Assembly: GCF_029633865.1 (NCBI RefSeq)
Contig: NC_079213.1
Coordinates: 106,828,740 to 106,892,739 of the forward strand
Source of the DNA: Lampris incognitus
Taxonomy: Eukaryota; Chordata; Actinopteri; Lampriformes; Lampridae
DNA length: 64,000 bases
Reading direction: 5' to 3'
Of the stretch, positions 2,015-60,661 are shown piece after piece. A model generated the notes under the pieces. The model was given only the letters and a program-made list of their open reading frames with translations. It did no database searches and was not told the DNA's origin. The translations under genes and the position numbers were made by a program. Position 1 is the first letter of the stretch; each line of letters opens with the position of its first letter.

Positions 2015-2123
2015 TGAGCACTTATAACACCATTGACGGTTTCAGAAAAAAAACGCTATATATATAGTGTAGCGTGCACGAATAAGTAGACACGCTGGCC
2101 CTTGGCTAACGGGTCGGACCCTT

Positions 2124-2177
2124 TAGTCGACTGGTTAACGTTGTCGCCCGCGGTGCGGGAGATACGGGTTCGCATCC
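2124..2177 (+). promoter_or_regulatory. tRNA-like RNA polymerase III A and B boxes inside the TRIM LTR
   Basis: An A-box-like TAGTCGACTGG lies at 2124-2134 and a B box GGTTCGCATCC at 2167-2177, 32 nt apart, which is normal tRNA spacing. The B box sits in a potential T-arm (cggg ttcgcat cccg). In the copy at 60376-60512 the A box reads TAGTCGAGCAG. The boxes are seen in the sequence; that they drive transcription is inference. Confidence 0.6.
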
Positions 2178-2221
2178 CGGCTGTGGCGCGGTTCCCGGGC
2201 TGCCCCCCTAATTCGCTGCAT

Positions 2222-2239
2222 TGGTGTCAGAAGTGGGAT
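2222..2239 (+). other. Primer-binding site matching tRNA-Leu 3' end
   Basis: TGGTGTCAGAAGTGGGAT is the exact complement of the 3' end plus CCA of vertebrate tRNA-Leu(CAG type), as I remember that tRNA. It lies one base after the LTR end, where reverse-transcription primers normally bind. The copy at 60357-60374 has one mismatch. Confidence 0.8.
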
Positions 2240-2322
2240 GGTGAGACCGTGAGGTCATTGGAAGCGCGTGCGCCCAGAGGCGTAAGGGAGCTGATATGCT
2301 GAAGCATGGGGACACACTTCCC

Positions 2323-2337
2323 GAAGGAGGGGGGTAG
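2323..2337 (+). other. Polypurine tract of the TRIM
   Basis: gaaggaggggggtag lies immediately before the 3' LTR start at 2338. The equivalent tract in copy D (60279-60297, minus strand) is also purine-rich and abuts its LTR. Confidence 0.75.
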
Positions 2338-2424
2338 TGTAACGTGCACGGATAAGTACACACGTTAGCACTTGGCTAACGAGTCGGACCCTTTAGTCGC
2401 CAGCGGTGTGGGAGATACGGATTC

Positions 2425-2458
2425 TGCCACTATATATAAATATATATATATAGTGGCA
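2425..2458. repeat. TA-rich hairpin at the TRIM 3' junction
   Basis: tgccactatatata and its complement form a near-perfect hairpin through a TA-rich centre. It begins exactly where the 3' LTR breaks off. Confidence 0.7.
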
Positions 2459-5477: not shown

Positions 5478-6701
5478 TACACTCACCGGCCACTTTATTA
5501 GGCACACCTGTCCAACTGCTCGTTAACGCAAATTTCTAATCAGCCAATCACATGGCAGCAACTCAATGCATTTAGGCATGTAGACATGGTCAAGACGATC
5601 TGCTGCAGTTCAAACCGAGCATCAGAATGGGGAAGAAAGGTGATTTAAGTGACTTTGAACGTGGCATGGTTGTTGGTGCCAGACGGGCTGGTCTGAGTAT
5701 GTAAGAAACTGCTGATCTACTGGGATTTTCGCGCACAACCATCTCTAGGGTTTACAGAGAATGGTCCGAAAAAGAGAAAATATCCAGTGAGCGGCAGTTC
5801 TGTGGGCAAAAATGCCTTGTTGATGCCAGAGGTCAGAGGAGAATGGCCAGACTGGTTCGAGCTGATAGAAAGGCAACAGTAACTCAAATAACCACTCATT
5901 ACAACCGAGGTATGCAGAAGAGCATCTCTGAACGCACAACACGTCGAACCTTGAGGCAGATGGGCTACAGCAGCAGAAGACCACACCGGGTGCCACTCCT
6001 GTCAGCTAAGAACAGGAAACTGAGGCTACAATTCGCACAGGCTCACCAAAATTGGACGATAGAAGATTGGAAAAACGTTGCCTGGTCTGATGAGTCTCGA
6101 TTTCTGCTGCGACATTCGGATGGTAGGGTCAGAATTTGGCGTCAACAACATGAAAGCATGGATCCATCCTGCGTTGTATCAACGGTTCAGGCTGGTGGTG
6201 GTGGTGTAATGGTGTGGGGGATATTTTCTTGGCACACTTTGGGCCCCTTAGTACCAATTGAGCATCGTGTCAACGCCACAGCCTACCTGAGTATTGTTGC
6301 TGACCATGTCCATCCCTTTATGACCACAGTGTTCCCATCTTCTGATGGCTACTTCCAGCAGGATAACGCGCCATGTCATAAAGCTCGAATCATCTCAGAC
6401 TGGTTTCTTGAACATGACAATGAGTTCACTGTACTCAAATGGCCTCCACAGTCACCAGATCTCAATCCAATAGAGCTTCTTTGGGATGTGGTGGACCGGG
6501 AGATTCGCATCATGGATGTGCAGCCGACAAATCTGCAGCAACTGCGTGATGCTATCATGTCAATATGGACCAAACTCTCTGAGGAATGTTTCCAGTACCT
6601 TGTTGAATCTATGCCATGACGGATTAAGGCAGTTCTGAAGGCAAAAGGGGGTCCAACCCGGTACTAGCAAGGTGTACCTAATAAAGTGGCCAGTGAGTGT
6701 A
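5478..6701 (+). mobile_element. Tc1-like transposon, DD36E type, flanked by TA duplication
   Basis: The element runs 5480-6699 with terminal inverted repeats: CACTCACCGGCCACTTTATT at the left end, and the right end complementary to it with one mismatch over that stretch. TA dinucleotides at 5478-5479 and 6700-6701 are the target duplication. Deleting the element and one TA restores cagatatatgtaac, exactly the sequence of the neighbouring 41-bp units. The element is about 1.22 kb and near full length. Confidence 0.97.
5627..6667 (+). pseudogene. Tc1-like transposase, two nonsense mutations
   Basis: The frame starts at ATG 5627 (MGKKGDLSDFERG) and would give 346 residues, the usual length for Tc1 transposases. 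It is broken by TAA at 5702-5704 (codon 26) and TGA at 6617-6619, where a CGA Arg codon is expected. The last 16 codons to the TAG at 6665-6667 stay in frame. The N-terminal part holds the helix-turn-helix DNA-binding region (for example SRTTISRVYREW). The catalytic domain has WSDESRF (D155), QDNAPCH (D246) and SPDLNPIE (E283). There are 36 residues between the second D and the E, instead of the 34 of Tc1 and Sleeping Beauty. That matches the DD36E ('Incomer') group described in animals. No frameshifts are present, so decay is recent. The intact stretch 5843-6619 (258 codons) could not make an active enzyme because it lacks the DNA-binding domain. Confidence 0.95.
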
Positions 6702-18543: not shown

Positions 18544-19996
18544 GTGGACCCAAACCAGTCTGGGTTCAGGGTGGGTCACTCGACAGAGACGACCCTCCTT
18601 GCAGTGACAGAATTGCTGCACTCTGCAAGAGCAAACTCTCTCTCCTCTGTCCTGATACTCCTGGACCTGTCAGCTGCGTTCGACACAGTGAACCACCAGA
18701 TCCTCCTCTCTACCCTCGAAGGGCTGGGTGTCACAGGCTCTGCACTCTCAATGTTTGCAACCTACCTGACGGGTCGCTCCTACCAGGTGACATGGAGGGG
18801 ATCTGTGTCGGAGCCTCACAGACTGACAACAGGCGTTCCACAGGGTTCGGTTCTGGGTCCTCTCCTTTTCTCCTTGTACACGACATCCCTGGGTTCTATT
18901 ATTCGCTCGCATGGCTTCTCTTACCATTGTTATGCCGATGACACCCAGCTGATCTTGTCCTTTCCTCCCTCTGACACACAAGTAGAGACACGCATTGCTG
19001 CGTGCTTGACTGACATCTCGAAGTGGATGGTGACACACCACCTGAAGCTCAATCTGGACAAGACAGAGCTGATGTTCCTCCTAGGGAAAGGTTGCCCGCA
19101 CCGAGACCTGGCCATCACTATTGACAACACCGTGGTGACGCCAACTCGGACTGTGAGGAATCTGGGTGTGATCCTGGATGACCAACTGTCATTTGCTGAA
19201 AATATTGCATCGGTTGCTCACTCCTGCAGATTTCTCCTCTATAACATCAGGGGGATTCACCCATTCCTCACCGACGAGATTGGCACAGGTGCTCATCCAG
19301 GCTCTGGTCATCTCCCGGCTGGACTACGGCAACTCCCTCCTTGCTGGCGCACCGGCGTCGGCCATCAGGCCTCTGGAGCTTGTTCAGAAAGCTGCAGCTC
19401 ATCTGGTGTTCAACCGCCCTAAGTTCTCCCACACAACTCCCCTTCTCATGTCCATACACTGGCTCCCAGTAGCTGCTCGCATCCAGTTTAAGACTCTGGT
19501 GCTAGCCTACAGGGCAGTGAAAGGAACAGCTCCTTCCTATCTCCAGGCCATGGTCCAGCCCTACACCCCTGCCTGACCACTTCACTTTGCTGCCTTGAGA
19601 CGGCCTGGTTGACCCGTCGCTCAGAGGCCCTTGCTGCCGATCGACCCGGTCACGGCTCTTTTCTTTCCTGGCCCCACAGTGGTGGAATGAACTCCCCACT
19701 GATGTCAGGACAGCGGAGTCGCTGCCCATCTTTCAGTGCAGGTTGAAAACTCACCTCTTTAAGAACTACTACCCTGTTACTTGTTCTTAGCACTTATTGT
19801 ATTCACTCATTTAAAAAAAAAATCTTTCTTGCACTTTTACTTTAGTGCTGGTTTTGCTCTTAGATGCTTGTTTGTTTAGATGCACTTATGACCTCTGATG
19901 ACTAGTAGTTCTCCTGATTTCCTACGTTAAATGATGCACTTACTGTAAGTCGCTTTGGATAAAAGCGTCGGCTAAATGACTGTAATGTAATGTAAT
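18544..19996 (+). pseudogene. L2-type LINE: reverse transcriptase, C-terminus and 3' tail
   Basis: This is the best-preserved retrotransposon coding region in the window. The first frame (18544-19422) begins inside the RT domain (DPNQSGFRVGHSTET). It carries LLDLSAAFDTV (first catalytic Asp, residues 40-49), GVPQGSVLGPLLFS (97-110), YHCYADDTQL with the catalytic YADD (residues 130-133), and LNLDKTELMFL. Near 19283 one base change shifts the frame, and the reading continues at RLAQVLIQALVISRLDYGNS (to 19576) and then WNELPTDVRTAES, LPIFQCRLKTHLFKNYY and a stop at about 19790. The 3' end (19945-19996) has the conserved 'taagtcgctttggataaaag' and a (TGTAA)n tail, the L2 recognition end. The endonuclease is missing (5' truncation). 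Confidence 0.92.
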
Positions 19997-22107: not shown

Positions 22108-22249
22108 CGTAACGTGCACGGGTAAGTAGACCCGTGAGCCAAGGTCGGACCCTTTAGTCGACTGGTTAACGTTGTCGCCTGCGGTGCGGGAGATACGGGT
22201 TCGCGTCCCGACTGCGACGGTTCCCGGACTGCCCCCTGAATTCGCTACA
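22108..22249 (+). mobile_element. Solo LTR of the TRIM family (copy B)
   Basis: It is 142 bp, starting CGTAACGTGCACGG (first base changed from T) and ending TTCGCTACA, with the same tRNA-like core: TAGTCGACTGG at about 22157 and GGTTCGCGTCC at about 22198. There is no PBS after it, so it is a solo LTR. No exact target duplication is seen. Confidence 0.85.
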
Positions 22250-27725: not shown

Positions 27726-27915
27726 AGTATTCTCTGGGTCCGCGGTGGTGTAGCGGTCTAAGCATCGGCTTTGTGTCGATGCAGTTGCCCACTGAGGACC
27801 GGGGTTCGCGTCCCGGTCTCGTCAGATCCGACTATGGCCGGACTCGATGAAGCAGCAATAATTGGCAACGCTGTCTTCGGGAGGGGGGCGGAGTCGGCTT
27901 GTGTTCGTCACATGA

Positions 27916-34089: not shown

Positions 34090-35232
34090 TTGTCAGACAG
34101 CTGCAGTGTGCCCTTGAGACCCAGGAACAAACACCTAAAGTCAGCTAGTGAGCAAATCCTGACATCTGCAGGGAAAACTATTACCAGGACTGGTGACCAA
34201 GAAGCTCGCATATTGGCATTGGCGCAGGAACACTTGAGCGGAGGAGACTCGTTTATTCTTCAAGAGATAAGAAACGGTAATCAAGCCCTCTCCAGTAAAT
34301 TCAACTCTAAAACCGCAGAAATTAATCAGTCTATCTCTGGACTGAAAACTATGCTGGATAAGCTGAGCTCCCGCGTAACCGGGGCGGAGGAGCATTTTGG
34401 CACAGCGGAGGACCAGTTGGTGGAGCTGGACTCGCGTGTTATCAAGTTGAGTAAGGAAAATTTCTTTTTAATGGAGAAAGTTGACCAACTGGAAAACTAC
34501 AGCCGACGCAACAATATAGTACATGTCGTTAATCTTCGGGAAGCCTGCGAGGGAAATGACCCTGTAAACTTTTATGCTAGCTGGATCCCAGCCACCCTGG
34601 GACAACAGCATTTCACTGAGCCTGATAGTGGAGCAGGCACATCGGGCTTCTGCACTCCATCCACTTGCAGACCAGAGACCAAGACATTAAATTACAGTCA
34701 TTTAGCCGACGCTTTTATCCAAAGCGACTTACAATAAGTGCATTTAATGTAGGAAATCAGGAGAACTACTAGCCATCAGAGGTCATAAGTGCATCTAAAC
34801 AAGCATCTAAGAGCAAAACCAGTGCTAAAGCAAAAGAGCAAGAAAGAGTTTTTTTTTTTAATGAGTGAATACAATAAGTGCTAAGAACAAGTAACAGGGT
34901 AGTAGGGTAGTAGACCTGTCCTGACGCGCCTGCTCAAATATCAAGATCGGGACAAAATCCTATGTATCATGACACGGAGGTCCAGAGAGAATAAGGGTCC
35001 CATCATGTATGATGATAAGCCTGTGCTGTTTTTTCCTGACCTGAGCGCCAGCTTAATGAAACGCAGGAAGGAGTACGACCAAGTTAAGAGGGAGCGTCGA
35101 TCTAAGGATATTCCGTTTGCCCTACTCCATCCCGCAACACTGAGGATCACGCCCCCCAATGGAAGGAGAAGATTCTTCAAAACACCTAGGGAAGCGGCGG
35201 CATTCCTACGCGACACTCCAGGAGAAACATAA
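34090..35232 (+). pseudogene. L1 ORF1 (RNA-binding protein), interrupted by an L2 tail
   Basis: The N-terminal part has a coiled coil with LDKLSSRVTGAEEHFGTAED and KVDQLENYSRRNNI, the hallmark of fish L1 ORF1, then PVNFYASWIPATLGQQHFTE. After one frameshift the region is cut by an insertion at 34686-34911 and resumes as PVLTRLLKYQDRDKILC-like, VLFFPDLSASLMKRRKEYDQ and ITPPNGRRRFFKTPREAAAF before a stop at 35232. The resumed part is the RRM and C-terminal domain. ORF1 normally packages L1 RNA. This one is dead through the insertion and shift. ORF2 pieces follow from 36160. Confidence 0.85.
34682..34915 (-). mobile_element. L2-type 3' tail inserted in L1 ORF1
   Basis: The insert at 34686-34911 is the reverse of the L2 3' end seen at 19770-19996 (shared 'cttttatccaaagcgactta' and 'taagtgcatctaaacaagca'). 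It is flanked by agac (34682-34685, 34912-34915). Removing it rejoins the ORF1 reading. Confidence 0.85.
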
Positions 35233-58049: not shown

Positions 58050-58411
58050 ATATACTGTCGGTAAGCTAGCTAGCTTGATGTCAAAGCTAACTAGCTTGAT
58101 GTCAAAGCTAATGTAACCGGTTATTTTCTTGCCCGGTGCGGGATTTGATACGGGGTGTACTGCACCACAAGGCGACGTCACTAACCGCTCGGCTAAAGGG
58201 TCAGACCCGTTAGCTAGGGGCTAACGTGTCTTATTAGTAGTTTACACTAACTAGCTTGATGTGGAAGCTAGCTAGCGGTGTACTGCACCACAAGGCGACG
58301 TCACTAACCGCTCGGCTAAAGGGTCAGACCCGTTAGTTAGGGGCTAACGTGTCTTATTAGTAGTTTACACTAACTAGCTTGATGTGGAAGCTAGCTAGCT
58401 TGATGCGGACG
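58050..58411. repeat. Tandem CTAGCTTGATGT units and a 123-bp duplication containing tRNA-like LTR sequence
   Basis: gctaactagcttgatgt-type units recur at 58066, 58090, 58249, 58373 and 58395. The block starting ggtgtactgc at 58154 is repeated at 58277, a period of 123 bp, with one or two differences. The duplication copied most of the LTR-like sequence of 58112-58246. Confidence 0.85.
58112..58246 (-). mobile_element. Diverged tRNA-like LTR relative of the TRIM family (copy C)
   Basis: On the minus strand the 135-bp unit begins TGTAAACTACT (at 58246) and ends CCGGTTACA (at 58112), again TG..CA. Its core (gacacgttagcccctagcta, then gaccctttagccgagcggtt) aligns with the TRIM LTR. The A box TAGCCGAGCGG is perfect, and the B-box region is changed (gtatcaaatcc). 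A partial second copy follows at 58277-58369. There is no PBS beside it. Confidence 0.7.
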
Positions 58412-60126: not shown

Positions 60127-60512
60127 CGTAGTAAATTCGGGGGGCAATCACAGGAACTGCCGCGGCCGAGACGCGAACCCGTACCGCCCGCACCGCAGGA
60201 GACGTCGCTATCCGCTCGACTAAAGGGTCAGACTCGTTAACCGGCGGCCAACATGTCTACTTATCCATGCACGTTACAATACTCCCTTCCTTCGGGGAGC
60301 ATCAGATCCTTCACGCCTCTGGGCGCATACGCTTCCGATGGCCTTACGGTCTCACCATCCCACTTTTGACACCAATGTAGCGAACTGAGGGGGCAACCAC
60401 AGGAACTGCCGCGGCCGAGACGCGAACCCGTATCGCCCGCACCGCAGGAGACATCGCTAACTGCTCGACTAAAGGGTCAGACTCGTCAGCCAGCGGCCAA
60501 CGTGTCTTGTTA
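60127..60512 (-). mobile_element. TRIM, second full-structure copy (copy D)
   Basis: Reading the minus strand: 5' LTR 60512-60376 (its first ~15 bp lost), PBS at 60374-60357 (TGGTGTCAAAAGTGGGAT, one mismatch to tRNA-Leu), interior 60375-60279 (97 bp), purine-rich tract at 60297-60279, and 3' LTR 60278-60127 (152 bp, TGTAACG ... ). Interior phrases ggatggtgagaccgtaaggc and 'gcccagaggcgtgaaggat' match copy A. Each LTR has the tRNA-like core with A and B boxes. Confidence 0.88.
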
Positions 60513-60661
60513 TCACCGGATAACTAGACGCGTTGGTCCTTGACCAATTAGTCGGACACTTTAGTCGAACGGTTAACGTTGTCGCTTGAGAAGTGAGAGA
60601 TACGGGTTCTCGGACTCCCCCTGGGACGGCTCTCGGACTCCCCCCCCCCCAATTCGCTGCA
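60513..60661 (+). mobile_element. TRIM LTR fragment (copy E), head-to-head with copy D
   Basis: ggataactagacgcgttgg ... TTCGCTGCA in plus orientation, with TAGTCGAACGG at about 60562 and ggttctcggactcc instead of a normal B box. It meets the truncated 5' LTR of copy D at a small palindrome (gttatcaccggataac, 60509-60524). Confidence 0.8.

What the first reader, a model, noticed from the sequence alone, without database searches (positions are those of the whole stretch)
2068..2425. Fish TRIM element whose LTR carries a tRNA-like pol III promoter
Sequence: 153-bp LTR with TG..CA ends, PBS exactly complementary to tRNA-Leu 3' end plus CCA, 117-bp non-coding interior, purine tract, second LTR. 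The LTR contains A and B boxes at tRNA spacing. Knowledge: TRIMs are mostly described from plants and a few animals, and Cassandra in plants carries 5S rRNA promoter sequence in its LTR. Inference: this is an animal element combining SINE-type pol III promotion with LTR-type replication, with an RT supplied in trans. Solo LTR copies such as 22108-22249 would easily be mistaken for ordinary SINEs.
Basis: partly seen in the sequence, partly recalled or inferred. Interest (0 to 1): 0.88.

Follow-up and report, generated by a model that had tools for sequence, protein, structure and literature searches.

The report
Fish mini-retrotransposon with tRNA-like ends
This is a tiny, protein-free LTR retrotransposon whose ends carry a tRNA-like promoter; it is real and very abundant in this fish-like genome, but the same kind of element (Helenus) was described in 2024.

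Summary
Window 2068-2424 holds a 153-bp LTR, an exact 18-nt tRNA-Leu primer-binding site (PBS), a 117-bp non-coding interior, a purine tract and a 3' LTR. That 3' LTR is only an 87-bp fragment without its A box, so no target duplication can be tested at this copy.

The idea is not new. Kojima 2024 (PMC10886601) named such elements Helenus, with fish families, tRNA-Leu use, 4-bp duplications and tandem arrays. This is a member of that kind.

What I did not see there: a strong RTAY target preference, shared in a few copies by two protein-coding Gypsy families with the same PBS; two copies with 29 and 35 nt of tRNA-Leu complement beside the LTR; interiors of only 47-54 bp. Pol III transcription and the helper element remain unproven.

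The parts
2068..2220 (+). 5' LTR of copy A, 153 bp, TG..CA
   Evidence: genome copies align to it, many end to end
2124..2134 (+). A box TAGTCGACTGG (1 mismatch to TRGYNNARNGG, consensus recalled)
   Evidence: mean major-base fraction 0.96 over the box in 26 genome LTRs, 0.90 in the rest of the LTR
2167..2177 (+). B box GGTTCGCATCC (1 mismatch to GGTTCGANNCC, consensus recalled)
   Evidence: mean major-base fraction 0.96
2222..2239 (+). primer-binding site, complementary to a tRNA-Leu 3' end plus CCA, 18 of 18
   Evidence: exact in 5 of 8 fetched own-genome tRNA-Leu-like genes
2221..2337 (+). non-coding interior, 117 bp
2323..2337 (+). purine tract with TAG before the 3' LTR
   Evidence: 19 of 22 LTR starts preceded by a G-run in L001-L070 have GTAG just before them
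2338..2424 (+). partial 3' LTR (A-box region deleted, 3' end missing)
22108..22249 (+). copy B, plausible solo LTR, flanks GTAG/GTAT (3 of 4)
60128..60516 (-). copy D: 5'-truncated LTR, interior with PBS (1 mismatch) and PPT, 3' LTR
60517..60661 (+). LTR in inverted head-to-head orientation abutting copy D
58112..58250 (-). copy C: related LTR-like repeat (TGTAAAC..CCGGTTACA) sharing about bases 3-81 of the main LTR
   Evidence: outer extent read by eye
58277..58399 (-). 99% tandem duplicate of 58154-58276, part of copy C

Best explanation
It is a Helenus-type TRIM (TRIMp3): a protein-free LTR retrotransposon, 408-427 bp in 13 measured elements. Shown: paired LTRs, an exact tRNA-Leu PBS, a G-rich PPT and 4-bp RTAY target duplications. 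Inferred: Pol III starts in the 5' LTR upstream of the A box (around 2105-2112) and reads through the interior and the 3' LTR to a T-run in the 3' flank. tRNA-Leu primes minus-strand DNA, and the strong-stop DNA transfers to the 3' LTR, so no terminator is needed inside the LTR. The PPT primes the plus strand. RT and an RTAY-preferring integrase come in trans from a Gypsy element that uses the same PBS. Later LTR-LTR recombination and self-insertion make solo LTRs, tandem arrays and inverted LTR pairs.
For: 6,214 LTR-PBS-interior junctions at up to 3 mismatches, reversed-pattern control 0. In 36 of 40 loci an interior has a same-strand LTR piece within 40 bp on both sides; in 20 of 40 both LTRs are near complete. 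15 of 19 chains with both outer ends preserved have exact 4-bp TSDs against 94 of 342 mispaired flanks, and all 15 are RTAY. RTAY precedes 26 of 40 LTR starts that have no G-run before them and follows 23 of 34 LTR ends without a PBS, against 1.4% of window positions. The PBS matches 18 of 18 in 5 of 8 fetched own tRNA-Leu-like genes. Two Helenus LTR ends are followed by 29 nt (L081) and 35 nt (L095) of exact tRNA-Leu complement, as if the primer tRNA had been copied beyond its usual stop. In L050 an inverted LTR sits inside another copy's interior, flanked by ATAT on both sides. A/B boxes occur in 18 of 26 genome LTRs on the forward strand and 0 of 26 on the reverse. 10 of 13 elements have no TTTT inside, and 9 of 13 have one within 200 bp downstream. 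Kojima 2024 describes the same anatomy.
Against: No transcript data. 8 of 26 LTRs fail the box test. 3 of 13 elements have an internal TTTT (L005, L017, L020) and 4 of 13 have none within 200 bp downstream (L012, L019, L023, L029); TTTT content is weak evidence at this length. 4 of 19 chains lack an exact TSD (L029 and L039 match 3 of 4, both L004 chains 1 of 4), and the two single-LTR rows of the same script match 0 and 1 of 4. The 40 loci are the best scored of 6,144 candidates for a query that spans LTR and interior, so they favour intact copies. No autonomous helper was identified: the LTRs of the two Gypsy families compared by BLAST (G72, G73) share no significant stretch with the TRIM LTR.
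Confidence: 0.9

Rival explanations
1. An ordinary tRNA-derived SINE copied by a LINE, with the paired LTR/PBS/PPT layout a coincidence of tandem copies.
For: The tRNA-like A and B boxes and high copy number resemble a SINE; tRNA-headed SINE-like repeats lie in the same window.
Against: Exact 4-bp TSDs at LTR boundaries (15 of 19), PBS matching own tRNA-Leu-like genes 18 of 18 in 5 of 8, 6,214 LTR-PBS junctions. SINEs normally have longer, variable TSDs and a LINE-type tail (recalled).
Confidence: 0.02
2. A TRIM transcribed by Pol II as in canonical TRIMs, whose A/B-box region is a relic of a SINE insertion with no present role.
For: No transcript evidence either way; 8 of 26 LTRs fail the box test; Kojima states that a functional Pol III promoter is not validated for Helenus.
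Against: Box positions are more conserved than the rest of the LTR (0.96 against 0.90), though the 10-nt blocks just before the A box and near the 3' end are about as high (0.95-0.97). Kojima reports box conservation across Helenus families. Both are modest evidence.
Confidence: 0.15
3. Most present copies come from segmental or satellite-like amplification of arrays rather than retrotransposition.
For: Tandem arrays in L003, L009, L011, L018, L031 and L037, and two near-identical arrangements 31 kb apart (L034, L035); one 10-unit array of partial LTRs in L044.
Against: Dispersed copies with their own TSDs on many contigs, and nested self-insertion with a TSD.
Confidence: 0.05

Closest known systems
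Helenus TRIMs, fish LTR-11_DR group (Kojima 2024, PMC10886601; parts 1-4 of 6 of the text, tables and legends, and passages read)
   Same: tRNA-like A/B boxes in the LTR, TRIM size, PBS and PPT, 4-bp TSDs in animals, tRNA-Leu among vertebrate primers, Gypsy proposed as helper, tandem arrays, thousands of copies in zebrafish
   Different: The consensus could not be compared (no supplement look-ups here). RTAY target preference, tRNA read-through copies, inverted LTR pairs and 47-54 bp interiors were not in the parts read; the shortest interior I saw stated there is 85 bp.
Cassandra (plant TRIM with 5S rRNA promoter; known here through Kojima's text)
   Same: Pol III promoter inside the LTR of a TRIM
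   Different: 5S rRNA instead of tRNA; no 5S match in this window
Canonical TRIM and SMART elements (through Kojima's text)
   Same: short, non-coding, LTR-PBS-PPT-LTR
   Different: no small-RNA promoter in the LTR
tRNA-derived SINEs
   Same: A/B boxes, dispersed, non-coding
   Different: mobilised by LINEs, no LTRs, PBS or integrase-type TSD

Membership tests
Helenus | TRIM: two LTRs, short, non-coding | tested here: met
   408-427 bp in 13 elements; both LTRs near complete in 20 of 40 loci; no listed ORF of 120 aa or more over 2068-2424
Helenus | tRNA-derived sequence with A and B boxes in the LTR | tested here: met
   boxes; 18 of 26 genome LTRs pass. Descent from a tRNA was not tested by alignment; ARAGORN and Rfam do not call it a tRNA, in line with Kojima's view that most are not functional tRNAs
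Helenus | PBS near the 5' end of the interior; vertebrate families use tRNA-His, -Leu or -Lys | tested here: met
   18 of 18 in 5 of 8 fetched own tRNA-Leu-like genes; the others: 1 mismatch (L104), 2 mismatches (L102), no 3' end found in the stretch (L105)
Helenus | PPT before the 3' LTR | tested here: met
Helenus | 4-bp TSD in animals | tested here: met
   15 of 19 exact
Helenus | sequence relation to the published LTR-11_DR consensus | not testable with these tools
   supplement look-ups capped at 0; no Repbase
Helenus | Pol III transcription | not testable with these tools
   no RNA data; Kojima also calls it unvalidated
SINE | no LTRs; LINE-type tail and variable longer TSDs (recalled) | tested here: not met
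   paired LTRs and 4-bp TSDs
Cassandra | 5S rRNA sequence in the LTR | tested here: not met
   no 5S family hit in the window or in 2041-2460 at E up to 10

The most novel reading that the evidence does not exclude
This Helenus family is mobilised in trans by a particular Gypsy lineage in the same genome: one that uses the same 18-nt tRNA-Leu PBS, whose LTRs end CGCGACA, and whose integrase inserts at RTAY sites. Pol III TRIMs and Pol II Gypsy elements would then share one RT/integrase although their LTRs are unrelated, so the target-site preference would act as a fingerprint of the helper.
Probability: 0.3. Interest if true: 0.5.

Novelty: new member of a known kind. Interest (0 to 1): 0.3.

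Why it matters
It supports, from copies across one genome, that TRIMs with a tRNA-like promoter replicate as LTR elements, and gives a tractable case for their open question, which helper moves them. The shared PBS and RTAY target give a testable link to Gypsy families in the same genome. Solo LTRs of this kind could be mistaken for SINEs in annotation.

Tried and rejected
Scans of IMG/VR and of prokaryote contigs for LTR, A-box or PBS words found 0 stretches. ARAGORN and Rfam did not call the LTR a tRNA. A search for an element with a CGACA-ending LTR, two spacer bases, the PBS and then a base other than A gave 3 places, not followed. G72 (L071/L072: gag, RT, RNase H and integrase domains over the two copies) has LTR ends like the TRIM's (TGTAGCG..TTCGCCACA) and a similar PPT, but its one readable TSD is ATAA, not RTAY, so it is a weaker helper candidate on that test. 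The LTR word count that would give the LTR:interior ratio did not complete, nor the search with locus C. The species was not identified. Literature searches. Besides Kojima 2024 I read two passages of a meeting report that cites it (PMC12859917). PMC3276498 on Drosophila target preferences and PMC3532108 on an ant TRIM were seen only in the listing.

Full report
OBSERVATION. The window copy has a 153-bp LTR (2068-2220), a 1-nt spacer, an exact 18-nt PBS (2222-2239), a 117-bp interior ending in a G-rich tract plus TAG, and a partial second LTR (2338-2424). The second LTR lacks the A-box region and its 3' end, so this copy is damaged and has no testable duplication. BLAST of 2068-2424 against the window finds further copies at 22109-22249, 60134-60661 and 58171-58372. 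The A and B boxes have one mismatch each to the consensus I recalled and lie 43 nt apart; 10 of 5000 dinucleotide shuffles have such a pair.

GENOME. The window lies at C3:106828740-106892739 of a 1.48-Gb, 537-contig genome that is held unnamed. A DNA search with 2068-2340 gave 85 matches; only 40 of 6,144 candidates were scored. I took 30 loci from that call and the other 10 places by region, and mapped LTR and interior in these 40. In 36 of 40 an interior has a same-strand LTR piece within 40 bp on both sides (not L024, L030, L033, L038); in 20 of 40 both LTRs are near complete. A pattern spanning the LTR end, PBS and interior start occurs 6,214 times (3,149 + 3,065) at up to 3 mismatches; the reversed control gave 0. 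This count includes array units.

REPLICATION MODE. In the 40 loci a script found 19 chains with an interior and both outer LTR ends preserved (some have inner LTR deletions, two are arrays); 15 have identical 4-bp flanks and all 15 are RTAY (ATAT 8, ATAC 4, GTAT 2, GTAC 1). L029 and L039 match 3 of 4, and the two chains of L004 match 1 of 4; mispaired flanks match in 94 of 342 because of the shared preference. The same script listed 2 single-LTR rows, left out of the 19, which match 0 and 1 of 4. Over LTR starts in L001-L070 without a G-run before them, 26 of 40 have RTAY; 10 of the other 14 have GTAG or ATAG, some of which may be PPT ends that the rule missed. Of 34 LTR ends without a PBS, 23 are followed by RTAY. 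Background in the window is 1.4%. LTR pairs differ by K 0.034-0.166 in 13 elements that I picked from 30 loci, so these copies are not very recent. Mean major-base fraction is 0.86-0.99 per 10-nt block of the interior, about 0.90 for the LTR outside the boxes and 0.96 for the two boxes.

PRIMER. A pattern for the 5' end of tRNA-Leu listed 18 places; I fetched 8. Five (L103, L106-L109) have the PBS complement exactly; L104 has 1 mismatch and L102 has 2 in the encoded 15 nt; in L105 no 3' end was found in the stretch. ARAGORN names L109 tRNA-Leu (CAG), calls L103 tRNA-Val (it has an intron-like insert), and found none in the other six. Of 1,082 places with the PBS followed by a base other than G, I read 50, all on contig C1 (30, 20). 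Two with Helenus LTR ends carry longer exact tRNA-Leu complement: L081 (18+11 nt) and L095 (18+17 nt). Two more (L056, L091) match for over 40 nt with up to 3 mismatches but show no Helenus LTR beside the PBS (L056; L091 by eye). I read L081 and L095 as copies in which the primer tRNA itself was copied; that is inference.

HELPER. Among the 50 places, 8 of the first 30 and 4 of the next 20 look like one Gypsy-like family, G73 (LTR 605 bp TGTAGTG..CGCGACA). Its copy L073 has an 821-aa reading frame with a weak Retrotrans_gag match (below Pfam's cut-off) and a WD40 match, and no RT hit. The 5' flanks of 8 copies are RTAY in 6 and NTAY in 8; L073 has GTAT on both sides. A second family (L084, L085, L089, L090; element L098 at the place of L085) has the same LTR end CGCGACA, a GTAT duplication in L098, and protease and RT domains. 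A third, G72, has gag, RT, RNase H and integrase domains in open stretches and resembles the TRIM in LTR ends and PPT, but its one readable TSD is ATAA. G72 and G73 LTRs share no significant stretch with the TRIM LTR; L098's LTR was not compared. The helper is therefore a candidate lineage, not an identified element.

REARRANGEMENTS. Arrays of LTR-interior repeats occur in L003, L009, L011, L018, L031 and L037; head-to-head or tail-to-tail LTR pairs in L004, L010, L011, L034, L035 and L036, as in window copy D. In L050 an inverted LTR sits in another copy's interior between two ATAT. Four of the 50 PBS places (L045, L065, L092, L093) have interiors of 47-54 bp.

LITERATURE. Kojima 2024 (PMC10886601; parts 1-4 of 6 of the text, tables and legends, and passages) defines Helenus by these features, lists fish families, and counts 5,575 LTRs and 2,618 interiors of LTR-11_DR in zebrafish, with tandem arrays, and 4-bp TSDs for animal families. 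In the text I read I saw no target motif, no tRNA read-through and no inverted pairs; 'palindrom' has 0 occurrences. Fish families are given for Ostariophysi, Acipenseriformes and coelacanth. Which fish this is, or that it is a fish, I did not establish; the UnaL2 hits and the general look of the repeats suggest it.

MECHANISM. Shown: LTR-type integration with TSDs, PBS and PPT, abundance. Inferred: Pol III start, read-through to flank T-runs (10 of 13 elements have no TTTT inside; 9 of 13 have one within 200 bp downstream), strand transfer in the 3' LTR, and helper in trans.

Noticed in passing
58112-58399: A related but different LTR-like repeat (TGTAAAC..CCGGTTACA, A box TAGCCGAGCGG) with a 99% tandem duplicate of 123 bp; it shares about bases 3-81 with the main LTR, perhaps a second tRNA-like LTR family.
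   Followed up: partly
1801-1896 and 1925-2002: Two hairpins side by side (38-nt arms 97%, 24-nt arms 100% complementary), just upstream of the element.
   Followed up: no
5705-6619: Tc1-like transposase reading frame (HTH_Tnp_Tc3_2 and DDE_3).
   Followed up: no
19932-19985 (+) and 34692-34745 (-): Two UnaL2-type LINE 3' tails.
   Followed up: no
15522, 20268, 24297, 26892, 29034, 52882, 58916 (starts): Several copies of one SINE-like repeat of about 300-430 bp, 72-88% alike, some with A and B boxes.
   Followed up: no
27741-27870: Another tRNA-like repeat with A and B boxes 57 nt apart.
   Followed up: no
L073:1951-4416: Gypsy-like family with tRNA-Leu PBS whose 821-aa reading frame has a weak gag match plus a WD40 match and no RT hit: perhaps a captured host domain.
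   Followed up: partly
L044:91-1498: Satellite-like array of ten partial Helenus LTR matches.
   Followed up: no
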